Shown: positions 311 through 37,017 of the stretch, in pieces
Position numbering within the stretch: position 1 is the stretch's first letter
Layout of the letters: every line of letters begins with the position of its first letter
Origin: Paramarasmius palmivorus
Taxonomy: Eukaryota; Basidiomycota; Agaricomycetes; Agaricales; Marasmiaceae
Length of the DNA: 64,000 nt
Direction of reading: 5' to 3'
NCBI GenBank assembly: GCA_037176845.1
Contig: JAYKXP010000085.1
Span: 1-64,000 of the forward strand
Translations under genes and position numbers: made by a program
The notes under the pieces: model-generated
Told to the model about the DNA's origin: nothing
Seen by the model: the letters and a program-made list of their open reading frames with translations, nothing else
Databases searched by the model: none

Positions 311-3300
311 ATGACCTCCCAAGAAATACGTTCTCTGCTCGAGCCTCCGAGCCTCAAAGAACCCCAGAAGTCCACAATAGCCTTCATTGATTCTCGATTT
401 CAAACAGTGGAGGATCTTGCCGGCATTGAAGAAGTGCTCATTGATGCGAGGAAACATCACGCAGAATTATCCGCCAGTGTACGCATTTCAACACCAAATT
501 TCTTTTGCTGTGTTCAAGAGACTTGTCATAGATTAGCTTAGCTCCTCGAAAGCTAGATTGGACGAAGTGATACTGGAAACGCGTACTTCAGCAGAGTCAT
601 ACGTGGAGACAGCTCAAGAGCTTTCTCTGATCAGGCATTCTATTGCGGATGAGCTCAGTGACCTTTCGGAACGACTGGAATCGGTTTCTTCGAATGGGCT
701 AGCACCGACGCTATTAGAAGACATCGAAACCCTGCATCGGAACTTGAAGGAGTTGGAGAGTATAAGAGGATATGTTATGGTTGTGGAACATGCTTTGAAG
801 TTGAGGTGCGCTTGAGCATCAGTCTTTCACGATACTCTTTCTAAACCTCGTCTAGTGAAGCAGCTGTACAAGACGTTGTCTCTGCATCTGCTGCAGCTGT
901 CATCTCAATATCCGCGGTTGCACAATTCCAAGCACTTCAATCCTTTGTTTCCAAGGTAGCTGAAGCCACTTCGGAAGCAGAGGCCACAGCGGGAACCCAA
1001 AGCTTACATCTCTCAAGCTTCTTGAATAATTTGCGCGAGAAAACTTGGGCTGACATGAAGTCCGCTCTTGCTGAGTACGCTCTGTTGGTTTAGAAACGTT
1101 TGACTTCGTGCTGACGAGTTCCCTAGGCTACTATTGACAGCAGCAGAGCAAATAAAGTGGCCGATGCAAGTCAACTATCCCTCCGTACCCCCAAATGACC
1201 GAGCAAAATTCGAGGCTACTTTCCGACATATGCTCCAGCTACAGAAAATGTCAGTAAAGATTTATTGTCAGCGTCTATTTCTGCTCATAGCATCGGCAGT
1301 GGCGTACAAATCAAGGCCTCAACCAATAACGAGGGCTTATATCCTCTGGAGGCCCTGGTCCAACCTATATCTCTGCGATTCAAATACCACTTTGAAGGCT
1401 CTCGACAGACAAATAGACCCGACAAGGTGGGTTCAAGCACTGGTCTTGCGTACCTATATTTCTCATTCATTACAGCCTGAGTGGTACTTTACCCATGTTC
1501 TAAATGCTATCCACGATCATCGAACATTCATGGAAACCGTTGTTCAGCAACTCATTGCTACTTCCGGACACGAAAATATTGACGCTTGGGTATGTATTTC
1601 TCACCCTTTTCTGCTACCAATTGCTGAAAAGATGTAGCGAGAGTTCACGGTACTGCTCCTTCCCCTTTTGACACGGAAACTCCGACGAACCGTCCCATCT
1701 CTGCTATCTCACCCTTCGCTACTGGCGCACACGATATACCAAGCCTTGTCTTTTGATGCCTCTCTACTTGAGACAGGGTTCGATTTACACAAAACCACTA
1801 GCGCAGGAACATCCGACGAGGAGAATAGATGGCCAGGAATTAGTGAGGTCATACTCGGAAAGAAGGAGTGGTTCGATGCTTGGGTCGAAGGAGAGAAGAG
1901 ATGTAAGTCGACAATGCTTCTAACGATTTGCATGGCGGTTGACCCCGTGTGCCCTATAGTCGCTGATGACCAATACCACGAAATCATCAGTGCATCCGAT
2001 GCTTGGCAAATTGCGGATGACGACCCTGAGTCAGAGTACTCTAACAGTGATTACAAGACGACGAACTCTGCGAGACGGGTGAAAGCTTTGGTTGAACAGA
2101 TTACAGGTAATGACCACACCTTCACCGATCCTTTCATACTGAACTGACCAAAACGATCAAATAGACCGTTATTCTCCCCTACCAAACTTCTCCCATCGGA
2201 CCAGATTCCTCATTGTGGTGCAGCTACCTATCCTCGAATCATATCATGGCCGCATATCTGCGTCTTTAGATGCGTTTGAGACGCTTTCGTCTGCTTTGGT
2301 TCGAGCGGTTCCTGGCGCGCTCGGTGTAACCCTAGGTGTCAAGGATGATACGAAAGTGAACGTGGATACTCGCCGGCTCACTAGTGGCGTTGAAGGTGTA
2401 CAGCGGCTGTGCAAAGCATTATTGAGTGCTCGGCACGTTGAAGCTGCGATGGAGCAGTGGGGAGAAGAGTTGGTGCGTTTGTGATTATCATGTTACGACC
2501 ATGACAGTATTAATGTGGTTATTGAACAGTTTTTCCTCGAGCTTTGGACTGAAATCAATCGTCGAGCGAGATTGAGGGCGCAGGCTCAAGCACATTCTGC
2601 TCTGCCTGACCCGACAACTGCACCGTCTGATAACTCGCAAGAGACAATTTTTGAGGAGTTGGTCGTGCAGTATCGAAAGCTGGGAGGCCGTTCAGAGGAT
2701 ATCATCGTTCAGCAAGTGTGTGCGGAAGTAGAAGCGGGGCTAAAAGCTCACTTCCAAGCTATGACTTCGTATGTCCATTCGTTTCCTTCAATAGCTATTT
2801 TTCACGGTCAAGCACGCAGGCCAAACCCGAATACCCCTCCTTTAGATGACGACATTTCATTATCTCAGACACTGCTCGGTCCCCTTGCGTTACTCTCCGC
2901 ACACCTTACCTACATCAAAACCACTCTTCCCAAGGCTACAGTGACTAGCTTGTACCGTCGCATCGCATCGAGGCTCGCAGAACATATTCTCCAACGGCAA
3001 ATTCTATACCGCGGGAATATTACTTTGACAGATGGCAAAACAGCCCTAGCAGAGAGCGAGCTTTGGGTTGAGACCTGCCAAACAAGTCTTGCGGGATCTC
3101 TGGGAGGCGGACGAAAGCGGGTGGAGGCGCCGTGGTTTAAGCTGTTGCAAGGCGCAAGAGTGGTTGCCGCCGAAGGTGAAATGTGGGATCACATTTCGGA
3201 TGCTACATTTGGAGCCAAGAGCCAAGAGGAGTGGGAGGAGGTAATGGAGAATATGACTGGCGGTGTGGAGATGAACAGAGAGGAGATTGGAAGGATTCTG

Positions 3301-3318
3301 CGCCGACGGGAGGCATAG
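311..3318 (+). CDS. RINT1/TIP20-family vesicle tethering protein (Dsl1 complex subunit)
   Basis: Tip20/RINT1 proteins belong to the Dsl1/NRZ tethering complex on the ER, which receives COPI vesicles returning from the Golgi. Multiple exons joined by short introns give a continuous helical protein. The N-terminal third is coiled-coil-like (ARKHHAELSA, EDIETLHRNLKELESIR). The middle holds the family block around LLPLLTRKLR and WFDAWVEGEKR. The most telling stretch is RFLIVVQLPILESYHGRI, followed by the C-terminal helical bundle ending in GRILRRREA. The ATG at 311 (MTSQEIRSLL) is the first in-frame start. Family assignment rests on the overall pattern and the LPILESYHGRISASLDAFE-like block. The exact gene name and each splice site are less certain. 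Confidence 0.78.
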
Positions 3319-3481
3319 ACTTTTCATTGTTCTTTACATTTTTCTGCTTCGAGATTCTGTGTTAAAGATCTGACCTGTCGATATTCAATTGGAGGAGGTA
3401 TACATCTACAGAAATACACAAAATAGGTAACCGATAACACCACGATAACAGTAAGGTGAAAACAAGATGATAGCTTAGCGC

Positions 3482-6225
<2,744 letters not shown>

Positions 6226-23418: not shown

Positions 23419-26137
23419 TCAATTCCACGTCGTTGGCCCAAAGGTGGCACCTTCGTCCACCATCTTCAGTGGCATCCCATTAGCATCGGCAGTGTTCTGC
23501 CATATCGTGTTGCCGATCCAGTCGATCTGGTCAATTTTCGTTGGATATACGACACAGAAGAAGATGACGACCAGACTGAGGGCGACACCGGCATCCAGGG
23601 CAGCGGAAAGGATGTAGTTATATCGCATCCACCATCTGAAGTGGCGGCGACGGACAACAAAGTTGAAGATGAATCCGACGAATGCCCACGAAGCGTAGTT
23701 GATACCGCTAGCAGGGGGGATGGCACCGACACCAGAGAACATGACGGGAATGTTGACGTATCGCCAGAAACCGAGGGGGTAACGGCGAGCGAGGAAGTAG
23801 AAGGGAATCGGAAGAATGGCACCGATGAGGTAGAACCATAAAAGGGAGCTGTAGGGCTGTCCCGGGCTGAACATGCGTTGAGGGCCAATGGCACCCCAGA
23901 TGAGGGATGCGGTAGCGAAAGTGTTCTCCGATGGGCAAACGAAGCCATCCTTCTGTTGAGGTGTGCAAATGTCCTCAATGTTTGCGAACGCCCAGTTCTG
24001 AATGCCGACGGTGACGAAACAGCTGATGGTAGCCGCGACAACCTGAACCGAGAACATCATGCGTGGGGGGATCTTCATGTAGTGGCCTAGCTTCAAGTCA
24101 CCAGCGAAAGCGACAGCTTGGTTAGTGCCGATGTACGCAATCGTCTTGAATATGATGTTTGCGATGGGACGATTGGGAAGCATGTAACCAGCTACAAGCT
24201 CGTGGAAGACCTGCATGTTGCTGACCTGCTGGTTCGTGATGGCTTGCAGCATAGCCATGGGAAGGGAAAGGATAGCTGCGAGACCGAAAGCAATGAGTGC
24301 GGCCCAGATCGGGAGCTCGGTGGGGAAGAGGTGAATAGAAGTGAGCAAGCATGCCATGGCGACGCATCCGACGGCGCCATACCACCACAAGGGGGCTTCG
24401 GGATAGGCTTGCATAAGACGAGAGTGCACATCACGCTCATCCTTCAATGAGCTTCGGAAGCGTCTAGCGATATCCCTGCGGAACCACACTGAAGACAAGT
24501 CAGCTCAGAAACAGTATAGAAGCCCCAAAAACAAACACTCACAGAAGGTGTGCACGAAGATTGAAGTGAACGCCGCGAAAGACAATGCGTAAGCCATGAT
24601 AAGAGTTGCAGGGATGTACAACGGAGAATAGGTGCGGTACTTCTCCTCGTCGAATTGGCCGTTGGTGACAATGGCTGAGGCATTGTAAGGCATACCAGTG
24701 TTGTCGAAAGATCTAGTTGCCGAAATGGGCAAGTACGCGGTGTTGAAGCTATTCGTGACTTTGACAATGTGTCAGTTTTGGAATTTTGTATGCAAAGATG
24801 TCGATACTCACAGTAGATGATGGGGACAATAATCCAGAACCAGAACACCATAGATACAGTAGTGTTCAACTCAGACCACCACTGTAGAGAAGACATGAGC
24901 TAAGAGCAAGGATTGAAAAGAGGAAGAACATACTGGAGTGACGAGGGGACTTCCGATGTAGGAAATCATTGACCAATCGAAGGTCAAGATACTCATACCA
25001 AGACCGGTATTGGTACCGAACAAGGCATTGACGGCCACGTTATCCGGAGCGATCCAGCATACCCAGTTGAACATGCTGAGAGCGGTGAAGAGATACCCGG
25101 GGAACCAATACCAGACGAAGCTGCACACCATCGCAATGAGGAAGAATCGCTCTCGAGTCATGTGTCCTCGATCACGCATTCCATAGTTCTTGTGCAAGGT
25201 GTTGAAGAGCGCAGAGTTGACCAAGGCACCAGGCCAAATCATACTCGACGGCCAGACAACGAATTGGCGCAAGAAACCGGCCAAGGAGAACCCAAGGATC
25301 TGCGTTCCGAGGGCAAGGAGAATTTGATAGCCGAACGTTAATTCGTGCTGGTAGAACATCTCCTGGGCAGCAAAGATACCGGTGGCATATGCACCACCAA
25401 CCACGATGTTGGACATCACTGTAATACAGACGTGCTCCTTGATGTTGAACGGACCTGGGTTGAGCGTCCATCTCCAGCCGAGAATGTTGAACTGGTATGT
25501 CGGAAGAATCCTCTCGAGGAGCTTGCCGCAAGGTAAAGACACCAGCTGGGCAACGATACCAGTGACGAAGACAGACGGGTCTAGACATGTCAGTCAGGAT
25601 GAGGTAAGATGAATAGCCGGAAGGATTACTCACATCTGAAACCGAAGAACTGATTGTTTCCAGTGACCAAGACGGAAAAGAGGATACCAAGGAACCACAT
25701 TCTGAAGGTGTTGACAGGCATAGTGGGGTCATCGATGCTTGAAACAGCAGCTCGAACTTCGGGGTACGGAGATTCACTGCGAGAAACCTGTCAGTTATGT
25801 TCCGTTCAGGTAGAGATATGTATACGCACTCGTCAAACTCGATGGCAGTTGAGTTCCGAGACTCGGCTCTGGATTGAGTGAAGCGCTCAGAGTCGATGTG
25901 AGAATCAGTGTCGATTTCGGAAGGGGCATAGTGATTAGCTTTCTTCGTCCCGAGCTCCAAAGATTCCGTCGAGAGAAGAGGCTTCTTCAAGTCCATGTTG
26001 GGGTCGTTCAAATGTTCCATCATAAAGTCGACATCTTCGGGAACATCGGGAACATGTCGTGGCCGCGCGAGGTGTGCGGGGAAGGTAGGGAAGGCGACGT
26101 GTTCCGTAGAAGTCGTGAAAGCTTTGCTGTCCTCCAT
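23419..26137 (-). CDS. OPT-family oligopeptide transporter
   Basis: OPT proteins are proton-coupled importers of small peptides, including glutathione, at the plasma membrane. After an acidic cytosolic N-terminus (VPEDVDFMMEHLNDP), the protein has many hydrophobic helices and family blocks: MPVNTFRMWFLGILFS, LPCGKLLERILP, LNPGPFNIKEHVCITVMSN, QILGFSLAGFLRQFVVWP, WPGALVNSALFNTLH, ALSMFNWVCWIAP and KLGHYMKIPPRMMF. The NPGPFNIKEH block is a hallmark of the family. It ends with GATFGPTTWN. Five or so introns are visible. The start ATG at 26137 (MEDSKAFTT) is the first ATG in frame. It is divergent from the dioxygenase gene, with 851 bases between them. Confidence 0.95.
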
Positions 26138-26988: not shown

Positions 26989-28438
26989 ATGTCTGCTACC
27001 GTAACTCAAACCGTCACTCAGGAATCGCAATCGGTACCTCAGGCTACCCTGACACTTCATCCCGAATCTGGCGAACAAAAGAAAGAGGAAGCGAGCCAAG
27101 AATATCGTTACGCTCATCTATTGCCAGCTTTCTCGCAGGATCGGTATCCCCCTCTGACACCATTCGAACACGTCGACCCAGCTTCCCGTGCTTTGACCCA
27201 TGCCAATCCCCGAGCATTCCTGGATAATGCAACCAGTATCATCGAGTTGACACCAAACCTTGGTACGGAAGTGCATGGTGTTGACCTGCTCAAGCTCGAC
27301 TCTGATGGAAGAGACCAGCTAGCATTGGAGGTGAGTGCCATGGCAATCACCATCTCAAACCTGACTAAGTAACTCTACAGGTAGCTAGAAGGGGTGTCGT
27401 GGTCTTCAGGGATCAGCAAGCATTCATCGACGCTGGTCCTGAGTCATACTTGGAATGGGGAAGACATTTTGGCCGGTACGTTCCTCGTTGACCCGTTGCG
27501 GAATCGCAAATTCAGCCCACTGCCTTTAGACTACACATTCATCCAACCTCCGGACACCCTGCAAACTACCCACAGATTCATCTTGTGTACAAGTACGTTC
27601 CCCGGTCATCTTTCAAGGTCCATAATCTACAACGAACATAAACAGGGACGAGAACAAATCTTTCAACTTCGAGAGAGACGACAGCATCACTACATCACTC
27701 TGGCACTCGGACGTGTCCTACGAGCTGCAGCCTCCAGGACTGACCACATTCTTCCTGCTTGCTCAGCCGAAGACTGGCGGGGATACCCTGTTCACAAGGT
27801 ATACACCTATTATTACATTTCATCATCGATAACGTCTGACTCACCACGACTTCTACAGTCAGGTGTCGACGCTGAAGAAACTGTCGCCCCAATTTGTTGC
27901 ATTCCTTCGCACACTCAAAGCTGTTCACTCCGGAGTTGAGCAAGCAGAATTCTCCCGTGCTGGAAAACGGGGAGGCGTTGTTCGCCGAGAGCCCGTGGAA
28001 CACGTACACCCACTTGTCAGAAGGCATCCAGTGACCGGAGAAGAAGCACTGTACGTCAACAGGCAGTTTACTCGCCGTATCGTTGGTTTGAAGCGCGAGG
28101 AATCAGGTATGTGTAAATATAAGTCAGGGTGTTCTATGAAGCTGATCTTGTCCAACCTCAGAAAACATTCTGAAGTTCCTCTACGACCATATCGACAAAG
28201 GTGTTGATCTTCAGGCCCGTGTTAAGTGGACGCCGAACACTGTTGTACTCTGGGATAACCGAACTACTGCACACGTATGACCCAGACTTTTTCGACGTAC
28301 AACATCAATCTAACTCATTTTTACTAGTCTGCCATTGTCGATTACGGCGAATCGAAAGAACGTCGCCACGGAGCGCGCATTACTCCTCAGGCCGAGAGAC
28401 CGATTCCAGCCCTCGAAGGCCTAGATTTGAACGCGTGA
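26989..28438 (+). CDS. TauD/TfdA-type Fe(II)/2-oxoglutarate-dependent dioxygenase
   Basis: The enzyme oxidises a small substrate using 2-oxoglutarate and O2. Taurine or sulfonates are the classical substrates, but fungal relatives vary. Exons join into a product with ELTPNLGTEVHGVDLLKL, RGVVVFRDQQAF, then SLWHSDVSYELQPPG carrying the HxD iron ligands. The distal His lies in NRTTAHSAIVDYGE, and RHGARITPQAERP includes the Arg expected to bind 2-oxoglutarate. All iron ligands are present, so it should be active. Start ATG at 26989 (MSATVTQ); stop at 28438 after EGLDLNA. Five short introns. The nearby OPT gene might import the substrate, or the enzyme might serve the peptide locus further right; both are guesses. 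Confidence 0.92.
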
Positions 28439-30546: not shown

Positions 30547-31644
30547 ATGTCTACGGAGAGGATCATTGAACTGGACAAGGATGCGCCTAGTATGAAGTCA
30601 TCCCCCTCTACCTCCCTACTGATGCCAGACAGGCTACATGCCTAGTTACTCAGCTCCGGGAGGCCGCCAGCGTGTGCGCAGGTGCGTACGATAAAGGTAA
30701 CTCGGTCAGGATACCGCCTCCGAGACTGGGATGATTATTGTTTTGGTAGACGATCCTGGTCTTCGAAGCCTCATTGGAGGTGATTCAAGCGTAATGGAAT
30801 CGGTATTCCTGGCCACTATAGGCGCTGCAAGTATCGGGGGGCATATCTATGCGGCTGTCAACGAGGATGCGAAAATGGTTGGCGTCGCAGTATGGTGGGG
30901 GCCGGGAGAGAACCCTTCCCGAATTACGTGAGTTCGGGTTTGGGCGCTCAGCGCTGTTCTCCGGCGCTACTTACATACGTATACTACGATCTATCCTCTT
31001 CCTCAGCGACGAACACCGGCAGCAAGGCATCCCCGATGTCCAGGATTTATTGACTCCCGAGACGTTACAGTGGTACAAGGACACCGTGAGCTCCGCATAA
31101 CTCCAAGCACCGCAAAACTGATCAATAAACCTTTTAGTATCAACCTGAATTAGCTTCTTTCACAGACCAATATTTGGGACCAAACGTCAGTCTCAGGCTT
31201 TTCAGCTGCTAGAGAGTGTCTTCAAACATCTAGGTATAGGGCAAGTCCAAAACTTGGTGGCTCAACCTGATTGCTGTGGGACCTAGCTTTCAGAGGCGTG
31301 GTATAGGCACGCGTCTTATCAGAGAAGTACAAGGCAAGGCAAGTTTCAGGTTGTACATAATCTGGTACGATTGACCCTGATCTCATGTCTTCTTAGGCCG
31401 GGGACTGTGGGATTGGCCTCTGCGCTACGAACAGCCTTAATGTATGTTTGACAACACCTTAGACTCACAGGCAATCTCAAGCCTGACGGATCCGTCGTAT
31501 TGACAGGCGTCAATTTATCAGGCTATGAAACTCACTATGGTCGGAAAGACCAGCATGGGAGGTCGTTTCGGCGAGTTTCCCGTCTACCTCTTTTCATCGC
31601 GCTGCAGTAATCATCCATCGGAAATCGAGGGGCATTTGTATTAA
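30547..31644 (+). CDS. GNAT-family N-acetyltransferase beside the peptide locus
   Basis: GNAT enzymes move an acetyl group from acetyl-CoA to an amine. Exon 1 (30547-30589) gives MSTERIIELDKDAP and splices to 30646, giving ITQLREAASVCAGAYDKDDP. The product continues LRSLIGGD, GHIYAAVNEDAKMVGVAVWWGPGE, then across a 78-base intron (to about 31006) to TDEHRQQGIPDV and LTPETLQWYKDT. The acetyl-CoA-binding motif is clear: WWLNLIAVGPSFQRRGIGTRL. A GC-AG intron (31339-31396) precedes AGDCGIGLCATNSLN. The favoured last exon reads TSMGGRFGEFPVYLFSSR and stops at 31644. The penultimate junction is the weakest part; reading straight on would instead stop at 31610. The gene is convergent with the UstYa-like gene and overlaps its stop by four bases. 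Acetylation of a peptide amine is a reasonable but unproven role. Confidence 0.77.
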
Positions 31645-32579
31645 AGCCTAGTACTAGAGTATCGGAGGGGAGCATTCTCTAAATCGTCATCTATGAAAAT
31701 AGACATGTCTTGCTGGTGGTCCAAGAAGTGATCCCTAGCCCAGTCTCGGATTCTGTCAAAATTGCGGCATGTGTGAATAACATCACTTCGCTCCTTCGCG
31801 GCTTTGGACCTTTCAGACCACTGCCACACGATGGGCGTAATGTCAGCCGAACACATCAAAGATTGGCGTAGGCTGGATATGCAGTGCCGCATATGAGGGG
31901 TGTGAATGCCTTCGGGAGTGACGGGATAGTATTCCGGATACATGGCTTTGCGCATCTCATTCTGGAATATTGAGTCAGGGTCAGGACACGCACATACTGT
32001 CAAACGCGTTCTTACCAAGCAATGAAGTTGATGAAATACATCGAGCGCTATCATGTACTGTCCGTCTGAGTCTAAGACAGGATACGTCTTGTTGGGAATG
32101 AGCGCTGCTTGATCCCGCGGCACTTGGTTGTAGGCATCTAGATATTCTTGATGAGAATGTTGTGTTACAAAGAGACAGTTTGATACGTACACTCGTACAA
32201 ACTGAGCCATGCAGCGTCAACCTCCTTAGAAGGCTCCCGGTCATAGATAGGAATATCAGATCCGAACGCGCTATGGAACTTCACGATCGTATATTCGACG
32301 GCTTCCTGCGCAGGAGCTGGAATAATAATGGGCAGAAGTTAGCGATGTATCGTTAAGACAGTAGAAACGCGCACAGTACAGGGCCAGAGATGTCCGAGGG
32401 TGTCCGGTATAGATATCCGCACGCGACACTAGCCATGCTATAGCCGATACGCCGTTCATAAGAAGAGAAACTATGAGAACGAGTAGCAAGGAACGAGAAA
32501 AACGCGTCGGCTGTGGCGAGACGAGTTCATCTCCCTTCTCCTGTGGTAGGGGAGTGTATGCAACATCGGTACTTCGCAT
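31641..32579 (-). CDS. DUF3328/UstYa-family oxidase
   Basis: UstYa-family proteins carry out oxidative cyclisation in fungal RiPP pathways such as ustiloxin, phomopsin and asperipin. Four exons (32375-32579, 32191-32316, 32016-32137, 31641-31961) sum to 774 bases, encoding 257 residues, the usual length. A short cytosolic N-terminus ends in one membrane helix (LLLVLIVSLLMNGVSAIAWLV). Then come the family block LYSPAQEAVEYTIVKFHSAF and EVDAAWLSLYE. Both diagnostic motifs are intact: HQLHC (in MIALDVFHQLHCL) and HMRHC (in GIHTPHMRHCISSLRQSLMC). The third splice acceptor at 32137 was chosen because the nearer AG creates a stop or breaks frame. This gene and the kexin-type repeat precursor at 34281 lie within 2 kb of each other, the classical dikaritin pairing. 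Confidence 0.92.
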
Positions 32580-34280: not shown

Positions 34281-35552
34281 ATGCTCTTCTCTCTCGTCTT
34301 CATTGCCTTGGCTTGCGGCCGCAATAGCGTGCTCGCCTTACCTGTCGCTGGAGGTAAGTACCCCCGACCGACGCCGCATTCTAATGCTCATTAGCCTCCA
34401 CAGAGACATCTTTAGCATCTCGACAAGATACTGTCGACCCCAACCCAATCTTTGCGAGTCATGCATGGGAAAATAGGTATGTATCTCGGGGAAATCCTGA
34501 TATGTGCGTCATGTTTGACGACTCATTCTACGACGTACAGGAAAAGACAGACGGGTATGTTGCTCCAACGTTGTTGATGACATCGATCATCGACTCAATA
34601 ATCATTCAAACTATCGGTGATACATTAGAGGAAACAAAGTGAGTCTTCATTATTTCCGTCATCTTGTGGCGGCCCATTGATATATCGCATATGTATAGCA
34701 AAAAGGGATTGAGTAAGTGTCACCCTCGGCCAACTGAACACCATATCGACTCAACTGAATACAGGCGAACTCATATTTGCGAAAGTTGCTTGGGAGGATG
34801 ATTCGTTAGTCATCTTCTTCGATTTTTTGCTGAAGTCTCATAGACTTCCCCCTTTAGAAAACGCAAACGTGATGAGACTGTCGACGAGGCAGGGTTAGTC
34901 TCTTTCTCCCTTGGTCTCGACCCTTTACTGACATGGAAGGCTTCTTGATCACTAGCAAGACCTTGGGTACGTTCCATGCTTGCTTTCCCGTACTCAACTC
35001 GGAGTCTTACGACCGTACAGGTGAACGTATATTTGCAAAGGTTGCCTGGGAAGGAGACGCGTAAGATACCGATTCAAAATTCTAGCTACTACTAGGGCAA
35101 GCATTGATCTCGTTGGTTATAGACGAAGGCGTGCAGATATCTTTGCCAAGACAGCCTGGGAGGATGCGTAAGTACTAAAACGACTCTTCATGCCTCGTCC
35201 TTACTCTGTATACGAAGACCCAAACGCCGGGACATTTTTGCAGAAACTGCCTGGGAGGATGTGTAAGTTATAGCGGCAACTTCGCATCTCTTACGAGACT
35301 AATTCTTCTTTTATTTATTTGCAGTGAGCGCAAACGCAGGGACATCTTTGCAGAGACAGCTTGGGAGGACGCGTGAGCTATTTCCGATGACTGTTTAGCT
35401 GATAAGATTGACTGTTGATTTCTCTGTAGCCGTAAACGAGATGACAGCGGCGGTAAGTGAAAATTTTGTGAAACGACCCTCAAACAAATACTGATGGTCC
35501 TGCCAAAGGTGATCCAATCTTTGCAGTCACTGCCTGGGACGTAGAAAAATAG
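34281..35552 (+). CDS. Multi-core RiPP precursor with kexin-type sites (dikaritin-like), 14 exons
   Basis: Fourteen exons sum to 516 bases, encoding 171 residues: 34281-34353, 34404-34476, 34541-34554, 34629-34638, 34699-34712, 34765-34804, 34858-34893, 34956-34966, 35021-35060, 35123-35167, 35218-35262, 35325-35372, 35430-35452, 35509-35552. The first exon is a signal peptide (MLFSLVFIALACGRNSVLAL). Seven related cores follow: PIFASHAWEN, LIFAKVAWEDD, RIFAKVAWEGD, DIFAKTAWEDA, DIFAETAWEDV, DIFAETAWEDA, PIFAVTAWDVE. Basic pairs (KR, KRKR, RRR, KRR, RKRR, RKR) separate most of them, as in kexin-processed precursors; the second core is preceded only by KK. Frame is kept across all 13 introns, which would be very unlikely by chance. 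The microexons between 34541 and 34966 are the least certain part. The neighbouring UstYa-like oxidase suggests side-chain cyclisation of the released peptides. The final product is unknown. Confidence 0.85.
35123..35372 (+). repeat. Three tandem core-encoding exons of symmetric phase
   Basis: Exons 10, 11 and 12 are 45, 45 and 48 bases, each a multiple of three, each entered and left in phase 2, and each coding basic residues followed by D-IFA-[KE]-TAWED. They are separated by introns of 50 and 62 bases. The similarity of the exons, with diverged introns, points to duplication of an exon-plus-intron unit that keeps the frame. Confidence 0.85.
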
Positions 35553-35726
35553 ATTTCTTCTGGGATACAAGGGAATGGACAAGCTCCTGGGCTAATATAT
35601 GACATACTTGTAGTCAAACAACTAATTAGAATGCTGTGGCTATCTTTCTCCAAAGCGTCCATAAAATGTCCGTTTCTGTATTGTGACAAACAAACCAAGT
35701 CCTAATAATATAATGCAGTACCTTCT

Positions 35727-36752
35727 CTACTCGTTCGGATTTGTCTTCCCAGCCTGTCCCAGAAATCAGCGAAGTAGAGAACGGGTAAGGAATAGCTTAC
35801 CTGATGGTCGCCTCCCCGATCGCGACCTTCTCCACATCCGCATAGTATCTCGTGCCACCACCGCACCTCCTTCTCTTCTTGTACTGCTTCCCCTTCAGGG
35901 TATAAGGTAGGAGCAGGTATGCTGTGCGGCGGTTCGTCGATCGGGGGTGGGGTACGTGGAGGCGGTAGACCTAAAGGTTGTGGTGGAGGGGCTTTACCCG
36001 TAAAGGAGGAAGTAGCTTGCAACGTCGGTCGCTCCGAGGTAGATCCACTAGAGTTTTGGGATACAGGTGGAGGTTCTGTAGTTGGACTCATCACAGCGGC
36101 AGACTGATGAGAGTCGGCGAATGGGGATAGTAAAGGTTCAGGAGGATTCGCAAAAGGGTTTCTCGGGTCGTTTTCAGTAATCGTTTCTGGTGTAGCTGGA
36201 CTTGGCGGTGTGATAGTCGTACTCTGCCGAGGTGAGAGACCCGGGGACTGCACCATGTTGTCCAAGGGTAAATGGTCCACAGAGTCCTGGGATTGTAATG
36301 CAGTATGGTTTCCACCAAGAGCGCGATGTCGGGATTGGCTGGGACCTCTCCAGAGTAAGCTTGCTCGTCTACCAACCTCGGAGGCAATAGAAGAGGTATT
36401 TGAGGTGCTGGTAAATGATTCACGAGCAGCTTTTCGCCGTAAGCGTTCTGTGACCTCCCACTGACGGAGATTCTGAAAAGGCACATTGCAGCGTGAGGCC
36501 CGTTTCTCGCTGTATTTTTGCATAACTCACCTCTTCTATTCTGCGAGTCTCTGCCGTCTCATCATTTCCTGGCGGGTACGCAGGCGATTCTGCCGTATCC
36601 TGGTCATCATCTGAAAATGCTTCCCTCTGCTTTCCCTTGCTCGCAGCAGACAGTCGCCTTGGTTCATCATCATCATCATCATAGTGGTCGGCAACGTCTC
36701 TGTCTTCAACTGGCGGGTGACGGTCTGTAGGGGACATGGACTTGGAGGACAT
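35727..36752 (-). CDS. Disordered Pro/Ser-rich protein with a conserved-looking Cys-Trp C-terminus
   Basis: I do not recognise a function. Three exons join into about 300 residues: an acidic start (MSSKSMSPTDRHPP; HYDDDDDEPRRL), a helical basic block (NLRQWEVTERLRRKAARESF), a long Pro/Thr/Ser-rich disordered section, and a compact end RWWHEILCGCGEGRDRGGDHQ. A short last exon adds AGKTNPNE before the stop at 35727. The WW..LCGCGEG motif looks like the functional part; I infer this from its contrast with the rest. Its start at 36752 is clear. It is convergent with the precursor gene, 174 bases away, and shows no link to peptide production. Confidence 0.7.
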
Positions 36753-37017
36753 TGTTTGGCGTCGACGACGTCAGGGCCAAGAGCTGGTTGGAAAACGTGA
36801 TCTTACATAATATTGGGCGCTAACCACCCTTGGCAACAGCAGTACATGCACACGAAGGAAGCAAGTACTATCGTGTCAAATTACCCAAGAAGAGCATCTT
36901 ACCAAGGTAAGTTCAGAGTTGAGATACACTATGTACAAGATGGAATGCCGTCAGCCTACTTGAGGGCCTGCATTCTAGCGCTCAAGAGTAAAGAAGCCGC
37001 GGCTGACGGTCCGAGCT

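What the first reader, a model, noticed from the sequence alone, without database searches (positions are those of the whole stretch)
34281..35552. Hidden 14-exon precursor for a family of secreted cyclic-peptide candidates with core IFAxxAW[ED]
Seen directly: 14 small exons keep one frame over 171 codons, begin with a signal peptide, and contain seven diverged copies of an IFA-x-x-AW core, mostly set off by dibasic sites. Known: kexin-type repeat precursors next to DUF3328 oxidases make dikaritins such as ustiloxin and phomopsin. The core here, with Phe and Trp but no Tyr, matches none of the dikaritin cores I know. Inference: a new basidiomycete RiPP whose precursor is almost invisible to gene finders because no exon exceeds 73 bases.
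Basis: partly seen in the sequence, partly recalled or inferred. Interest (0 to 1): 0.95.

Follow-up and report, generated by a model that had tools for sequence, protein, structure and literature searches.

The report
Mushroom tryptophan-peptide precursor, one core per exon
A fungal genome, likely that of Paramarasmius palmivorus, carries seven scattered copies of a short tryptophan-bearing peptide that are predicted to be spliced from tiny exons into one secreted precursor, next to an enzyme gene of the family that makes cyclic peptides in moulds, and related precursors and enzymes occur in other mushrooms, so these fungi likely make an overlooked class of such peptides.

Summary
Seven IFAxxAW copies lie at 34448-35539 in three frames; a DNA pattern for the motif hits only these seven and their seven counterparts on the other haplotype (C31). 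A Moniliophthora roreri homologue, aligned with introns allowed, reproduces 13 introns, 11 exactly as in the 14-exon model; simple splice scoring did not rank that model first. Homologues occur in Moniliophthora, Lentinula and Collybiopsis. One correction: the gene is annotated on C31 (VNI00_008915), with introns retained. Five more UstYa loci in this genome carry a hydrophobic leader and an intron-divided array of tryptophan cores, in the same head-to-head arrangement; 0 of 10 control pieces carry an array. None of 65 cores has Tyr. Most likely this is a Kex2-processed, UstYa-modified peptide family with tryptophan cores. Expression, cross-link and activity are untested. Intron-split cores may help explain why few UstYa-linked precursors were found in Basidiomycota.

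The parts
34281..34353 (+). exon 1, hydrophobic leader MLFSLVFIALACGRNSVLALPVAGE (predicted signal peptide, judged by eye)
   Evidence: alignable in P0002
34404..34476 (+). exon 2, core 1 IFASHAWE (34448-34471)
34541..34554 (+). exon 3, dibasic spacer RKRQT
   Evidence: acceptor confirmed; donor differs there (34570)
34629..34638 (+). exon 4, spacer micro-exon (10 nt)
34699..34712 (+). exon 5, spacer micro-exon (14 nt)
34765..34804 (+). exon 6, core 2 IFAKVAWE
34858..34893 (+). exon 7, dibasic spacer KRKR
34956..34966 (+). exon 8, spacer micro-exon (11 nt)
35021..35060 (+). exon 9, core 3 IFAKVAWE
   Evidence: acceptor; the rest of the exon is skipped there because the guide protein has six cores
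35123..35167 (+). exon 10, core 4 IFAKTAWE, phase-symmetric
   Evidence: donor
35218..35262 (+). exon 11, core 5 IFAETAWE, phase-symmetric
35325..35372 (+). exon 12, core 6 IFAETAWE, phase-symmetric
35430..35452 (+). exon 13, dibasic spacer RKR
35509..35552 (+). exon 14, core 7 IFAVTAWD and stop
31641..32579 (-). UstYa (DUF3328) gene, exons 32579-32375, 32316-32191, 32137-32016, 31961-31641, 257 aa with one predicted N-terminal helix and HQLHC/HMRHC motifs
   Evidence: Pfam E 4.9e-32; model identical to VNI00_014698; motifs; helix 27-58 in the AF2 model

Best explanation
Window 34281-35552 holds seven IFAxxAW core copies that are predicted to be spliced from 14 mini-exons into one secreted precursor, each core in its own exon, which would be cut at dibasic sites by a Kex2-type protease and likely cross-linked through tryptophan by the UstYa-family enzyme encoded head-to-head 1.7 kb away. 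Shown: the cores and the silent-site bias of their differences, the conserved protein family, the UstYa gene with both HxxHC motifs, and nearness of precursor and UstYa in three further genera by locus number or contig length. Inferred: in the secretory pathway the copper oxidase removes 2H or 4H from each core, joining the Trp ring to a nearby residue (Ile or Phe would be the first guess), and small cyclic peptides are exported. Four of the exons, three of them core exons, have lengths divisible by three and matching phases, so unequal crossing-over in introns, or exon skipping, could change the number and mix of cores without breaking the frame.
For: Genome-wide specificity of the motif. Homologues P0001-P0010. 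Spliced alignment, 11 of 13 introns exact. Identity to M. roreri P0002 at aligned positions: cores 42 of 48, other positions after residue 25 48 of 83. Synonymous share 57 of 66. Dibasic site in 6 of 6 intervals here and 5 of 5 in P0002. UstYa gene and relatives. Nearness: Moror_12715/Moror_12716 with contig length 186038 for both, D9757_002199/D9757_002198 with 726963 for both, and L. aciculospora P0021/P0005 with 4268692 for both. UstYa relatives form a fork supported 95/95 in a 36-row tree, with sub-branches that follow taxonomy. Five further UstYa-linked intron-split arrays with hydrophobic leaders, each divergent to UstYa; array of four or more copies in 6 of 17 UstYa pieces (one of the six is this locus's other haplotype) against 0 of 10 control pieces. 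UstY enzymes as dicopper, O2-dependent side-chain cross-linkers: PMC12186524 (passages).
Against: No transcript, mass or product was seen. Simple splice scoring did not choose the 14-exon model, and NCBI's model retains introns (P0001). In the annotated Lentinula and Collybiopsis homologues dibasic sites stand in only 0 of 4 to 3 of 4 intervals, so release cannot rest on Kex2 alone there, unless small exons were missed. The first two Lentinula hits had E-values of only 0.069 and 0.44 and were accepted for their repeated core and leader before entering the profile. Known UstY products in the papers seen use Tyr or, in victorin, Phe (PMC9233826, passages); none uses Trp. 11 of 17 UstYa pieces showed no array. 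On the UstYa tree the species with a known IFA precursor are not one clade (4 label changes).
Confidence: 0.72

Rival explanations
1. The precursor is a Kex2-processed repeat protein that gives linear secreted peptides (signal or pheromone-like), and the UstYa gene is a chance or unrelated neighbour.
For: Linear KEP peptides ending in -AADW were detected in Lentinula edodes and Pleurotus (PMC9769878, section 8). [quoted passage not shown]
Against: Nearness to a close UstYa relative in three other genera. Six arrays in this genome, this one included, are head-to-head with UstYa genes, with 0 arrays in 10 control pieces.
Confidence: 0.13
2. The protein is a secreted repeat protein whose IFAxxAW motifs act uncut, for example as repeated binding motifs, and the dibasic sites are incidental.
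For: Lentinula homologues keep the motif while lacking dibasic sites in many intervals.
Against: Dibasic sites in 6 of 6 intervals here and 5 of 5 in M. roreri P0002; link to UstYa.
Confidence: 0.09
3. A decaying or unexpressed repeat locus, the motifs surviving by recent duplication only.
For: No expression data; three exonic differences between haplotypes, one of them amino-acid changing (read by eye).
Against: Synonymous excess between copies, conservation across genera, same core strings in both haplotypes.
Confidence: 0.04

Closest known systems
Dikaritins (ustiloxin, phomopsin, asperipin-2a, victorin)
   Same: Leader, repeated cores, Kex2-type sites, UstYa-family gene beside the precursor (features from PMC9233826 passages, and PMC7329392 section 7)
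   Different: None of 65 cores examined has Tyr; all have Trp, partly because most were collected with a pattern that holds W. No tyrosinase match on any contig bearing an array. Cores split over mini-exons. Basidiomycete
Kex2-processed repeat proteins (KEPs), including DUF3328-linked ones
   Same: Secreted repeat precursor with dibasic sites. Umemura 2020 lists a DUF3328-linked type with W (P-3), whose seven genes come from Fonsecaea, Cladophialophora, Galerina, Psilocybe and Coprinellus, four of them with a DUF3328 neighbour (passages; section 7)
   Different: Only 103 of 1680 basidiomycete KEPs there had a DUF3328 neighbour; cores split by introns; six core strings from this family and the other arrays occur in none of the held papers
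Epichloecyclins (gigA)
   Same: Multi-core secreted precursor giving cyclic peptides (PMC9233826 passages)
   Different: Tyr-Ile cross-link there; no Tyr here. Whether gigA has intron-split repeats was not seen in anything read
Burpitides of plants (lyciumin, moroidin)
   Same: Copper-dependent side-chain cross-linking (PMC12186524 passages); that some use Trp is recalled
   Different: Unrelated enzyme family and kingdom

Membership tests
UstYa/DUF3328 enzymes | PF11807 match and two HxxHC motifs | tested here: met
   E 4.9e-32; HQLHC at 146 and HMRHC at 174
UstYa/DUF3328 enzymes | Dicopper active site | not testable with these tools
   AF2 model of middling confidence (mean pLDDT 77), no PDB relative
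Kex2-processed repeat proteins | Signal peptide plus repeats separated by dibasic sites | tested here: met
   dibasic in 6 of 6 intervals; leader judged by eye, no signal-peptide predictor was run
Kex2-processed repeat proteins | Actual cleavage by Kex2 | not testable with these tools
   needs peptidomics
Dikaritins | UstYa-family gene beside a multi-core precursor | tested here: met
Dikaritins | Tyr-based ether cross-link in the core (ustiloxin, phomopsin, asperipin type) | tested here: not met
   no Tyr in the 171-aa model; victorin, which uses Phe, shows that the class is loose
Dikaritins | Cyclic product | not testable with these tools
   needs LC-MS
Dikaritins | Clustered tyrosinase (ustiloxin, phomopsin only) | tested here: not met
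   16 PF00264 matches, all on C9, C15, C18, C38, C48, C79 (counts are lower bounds)
Amanita MSDIN cyclic peptides | MSDIN leader, single core between prolines, no signal peptide (recalled) | tested here: not met
   the model starts with a hydrophobic leader and has seven cores

The most novel reading that the evidence does not exclude
Mushroom-forming fungi make a large hidden class of tryptophan-cross-linked UstYa peptides whose precursors are written with cores split over small, often phase-matched exons, so that copies can be added, lost or skipped without breaking the frame; surveys of annotated proteins missed most of them, which would explain why UstYa-linked precursors looked rare in Basidiomycota.
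Probability: 0.5. Interest if true: 0.87.

Novelty: new variant of a known kind. Interest (0 to 1): 0.74.

Why it matters
Umemura 2020 counted DUF3328 neighbours for 103 of 1680 basidiomycete repeat precursors and offered two readings: a different cyclization motif, or hardly any cyclization there (PMC7329392, section 7). Yet mushrooms carry many UstYa genes (16 in Pleurotus, PMC8893723, passage). Intron-split precursors could resolve that mismatch and say where to look: head-to-head with UstYa genes, for repeats spaced about 100-120 bases, frame by frame. It also points to UstYa chemistry on tryptophan, and the shiitake relatives of this precursor give a safe place to test it.

Tried and rejected
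Simple splice-site dynamic programming to support the 14-exon model: it did not rank that model first; the homologue-guided alignment was used instead. A Lentinula precursor as query in the own genome found nothing, which the tool itself calls uninformative. Fold search with the UstYa model (AlphaFold2, mean pLDDT 77) gave 0 matches at E 0.001 in the PDB, and there was no PDB relative by sequence up to E 1, so no structural support for a copper site was gained. A precursor beside the UstYa at L017: a leader only, no repeats seen. L014: leader plus one clear core SDTPFDNKTWFKR and one degraded-looking copy, not counted among the arrays. Array scan: 11 of 17 UstYa pieces negative. Reciprocal test for the VDxxNxxW pattern: 53 hits, 31 in the two arrays on C26 and C84, 22 scattered singles, against 17 for the reversed control. 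DNKxIWIK pattern: 6 hits, all in the C21 array, control 0. Pheromone reading of the basidiomycete type rejected for lack of a CAAX end (seen in the sequence; the rule is recalled). Paper searches. In the listings shown (capped: for example 25 of 159 papers, 15 of 14,524) no title or abstract start dealt with these cores or with intron-split UstYa precursors. Most subscription papers are not held.

Full report
What is there. The window is contig C85 of a 68.3-Mb, 393-contig genome. The UstYa model of the window is 100% identical over its length to VNI00_014698 of Paramarasmius palmivorus, and the precursor matches VNI00_008915 on a contig of length 549664, the length of C31, so the species is very likely P. 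palmivorus. C31 carries the same region at 98.3% and 98.5% identity in the two 10-kb stretches compared, as expected for the second nucleus of a dikaryon.

The motif. Seven IFAxxAW copies stand at 34448-35539 in three frames. A degenerate pattern for the motif occurs 14 times in the whole genome, seven here and seven on C31, and its reversed control 0 times. A looser IFAK-type pattern adds 3 single hits elsewhere. Of 66 pairwise single-base codon differences between copies 57 are synonymous, where 19% would be expected. The pairs are not independent, and the copies were picked by an amino-acid pattern, so this overstates the case; but the pattern allowed other residues at the first and sixth places, and all seven copies have Ile and Ala there.

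The gene model. A hand-read model of 14 exons (73, 73, 14, 10, 14, 40, 36, 11, 40, 45, 45, 48, 23, 44 nt) gives 171 residues and a stop. Two simple splice scorers did not choose it: near versions came third and ninth, and one search gave 10 exons. The test with weight is the alignment of the M. roreri homologue P0002 with introns allowed: 14 exons, 11 of 13 introns exactly as in the model; one donor differs, and one intron skips a core because that protein has six cores. NCBI's model of the C31 copy retains the stretch equivalent to 34477-34638 (P0001); P0002 instead supports the spliced form, with KKRQ before EETSDRG, though it has seven more residues between them. Each core lies in a different exon, and each of the 6 intervals between cores has a dibasic site. 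Exons 7, 10, 11 and 12 begin and end in the same phase.

Relatives. phmmer gave five proteins up to E 10: the C31 protein (1.7e-94), two M. roreri models (8.1e-47 and 5.3e-29), and two Lentinula proteins at 0.069 and 0.44. I accepted the last two because each has six copies of IFAK/E-x-x-W (one of twelve ends in G) behind a leader. A profile with all five then listed ten proteins, adding L. guzmanii, two L. edodes models, L. raphanica and Collybiopsis confluens at E 1.6e-33 to 2e-14 (only the 7995 candidates sharing most words were scored). The core is IFA-x-x-[AQ]-W with few exceptions. Against M. roreri P0002, aligned core residues are identical at 42 of 48 positions and others after residue 25 at 48 of 83. 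In P0004-P0010 dibasic sites stand in 2 of 5, 2 of 5, 0 of 4, 2 of 5, 1 of 4, 1 of 2 and 3 of 4 intervals. Either those fungi release the cores differently, or small exons were missed in annotation; this could not be tested.

The neighbour. A UstYa gene on the minus strand starts 1.7 kb from the precursor's ATG. It has both HxxHC motifs, as do 117 of the 120 listed relatives scanned (itself included). Among the 264 relatives (120 listed), the closest named ones are one row per species in Marasmius kin, Lentinula, Collybiopsis, Dendrothele, Tetrapyrgos and Rhodocollybia. In a tree of 36 selected rows, rooted at the midpoint, a fork of 21 rows (95/95) holds these relatives and single Mycena-group rows, with sub-branches that follow taxonomy; species with a known IFA precursor do not form one clade (4 changes). 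No precursor was found for Marasmius fiardii, Dendrothele, Tetrapyrgos, C. luxurians, Rhodocollybia, L. boryana or Mycena; whether absent or unannotated is open. Other genes nearby: an OPT oligopeptide transporter (23419-25593) and a TauD-like piece (27833-28207) on one side, unnamed open frames, F-box and ALG10 pieces on the other. The broad scan of 69 other frames showed only the first 25 of 79 families, so the gene list of the window is incomplete. No tyrosinase match lies on any array-bearing contig.

The wider pattern. I fetched 17 pieces around the UstYa matches other than the window itself (L009, L011-L026). Some are not independent: L009 is the other haplotype of this locus, L014/L016 are 95.6% alike, L019/L026 77-89%. 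Six of 17 carry an array of at least four copies (5 of 16 without L009), against 0 of 10 control pieces: five window pieces, L010 (the other haplotype of part of two of them) and L027-L030. The five beyond this locus are L011 (14 copies, VDDANIGWKDEPV), L012 (15, VDANNDHWTI type), L013 (16, GVDLDNKQWGLK), L015 (5, VDVDIANTNQDWWKR type) and L018 (8, DNKNIWIKR). In four of these, every gap over 75 nt between cores holds a possible in-frame GT-AG intron: L011 13 of 13, L012 10 of 10, L013 8 of 8, L018 7 of 7; L015 was read by eye only. With free choice of sites such introns are not rare by chance, and I ran no null for this, so the weight lies on the regular spacing and on the synonymous share: 573 of 586, 325 of 405, 563 of 567, 43 of 61 and 85 of 103 for L011, L012, L013, L015 and L018, 15-20% expected (copies again picked by amino-acid pattern). 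In L013 seven gaps and in L012 four gaps lie within one exon, so 'one core per exon' holds for this locus, L011, L018 and L015 but not throughout. All five have an ATG with a hydrophobic leader just upstream and stand head-to-head with a UstYa gene. Of the 65 cores none has Tyr and all have Trp; for this locus, L011, L012, L015 and L018 the collecting pattern held a W, for L013 it did not.

How it would work. From the literature: UstY enzymes are dicopper, O2-dependent cross-linkers of core side chains (PMC12186524, passages), and dikaritin precursors are cut by Kex2 (PMC9233826, passages). From that I infer secretion, cutting at KR/RR, and oxidative cross-linking at Trp. Which bond forms is a guess. 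The exon layout would let unequal crossing-over in introns change copy number without frame damage; that is inference from phase and spacing.

What is new. Known kind: UstYa-linked multi-core peptide precursors. New here, as far as the held papers go: a conserved IFAxxAW family in Marasmius kin, Lentinula and Collybiopsis, and intron-split tryptophan-core arrays at six UstYa loci of one genome. Umemura 2020 (section 7 read; passages) found a DUF3328 gene near 103 of 1680 basidiomycete KEPs. Three of its seven abundant DUF3328-linked types lacked Tyr, one of them (P-3, partly from Galerina, Psilocybe and Coprinellus) with Trp, so Trp cores near DUF3328 are not without precedent. None of six core strings searched is in the held papers. 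P. palmivorus is a palm pathogen and M. roreri a cocoa pathogen (recalled); no role in disease was examined.

Noticed in passing
L011 2348-3906 minus (C1:568000-577999): UstYa-linked precursor with 14 near-identical cores VDDANIGWKDEPV; 12 of 13 units between cores splice to 54 nt (one to 60), with introns of 47-62 nt.
   Followed up: partly
L013 7509-9010 plus (C26:482500-492499): UstYa-linked precursor with 16 GVDLDNKQWGLK-type cores, often two per exon.
   Followed up: partly
L012 7809-9780 plus (C84:108000-117999): UstYa-linked precursor with 15 diverged VDxxNxxW cores.
   Followed up: partly
L018 about 2935-3874 minus (C21:158500-168499): UstYa-linked precursor with 8 DNKNIWIKR-type cores, a possible intron after each of the first seven.
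   Followed up: partly
L015 about 3760-4399 minus (C99:135000-144999): UstYa-linked precursor with 5 cores of the VDVDxANxNQDWWKR type.
   Followed up: partly
L014 about 2980-3678 minus (C99:2000-11999): Hydrophobic leader and one clear core SDTPFDNKTWFKR plus a degraded-looking copy beside a UstYa gene.
   Followed up: partly
window 35220 against C31: Haplotypes differ Pro to Arg just before a dibasic site (PKRR against RKRR); the core strings are the same.
   Followed up: no
window 23419-25593 minus: OPT oligopeptide transporter about 6 kb from the UstYa gene; a possible partner, not tested.
   Followed up: no
window 35702-36770 minus: Open frames directly downstream of the precursor with no Pfam match at E 0.01.
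   Followed up: no
C1, C21, C26, C84: These UstYa loci have no near-identical second copy among the fetched pieces, unlike C85/C31; possibly present in one nucleus only, or collapsed in the assembly.
   Followed up: no
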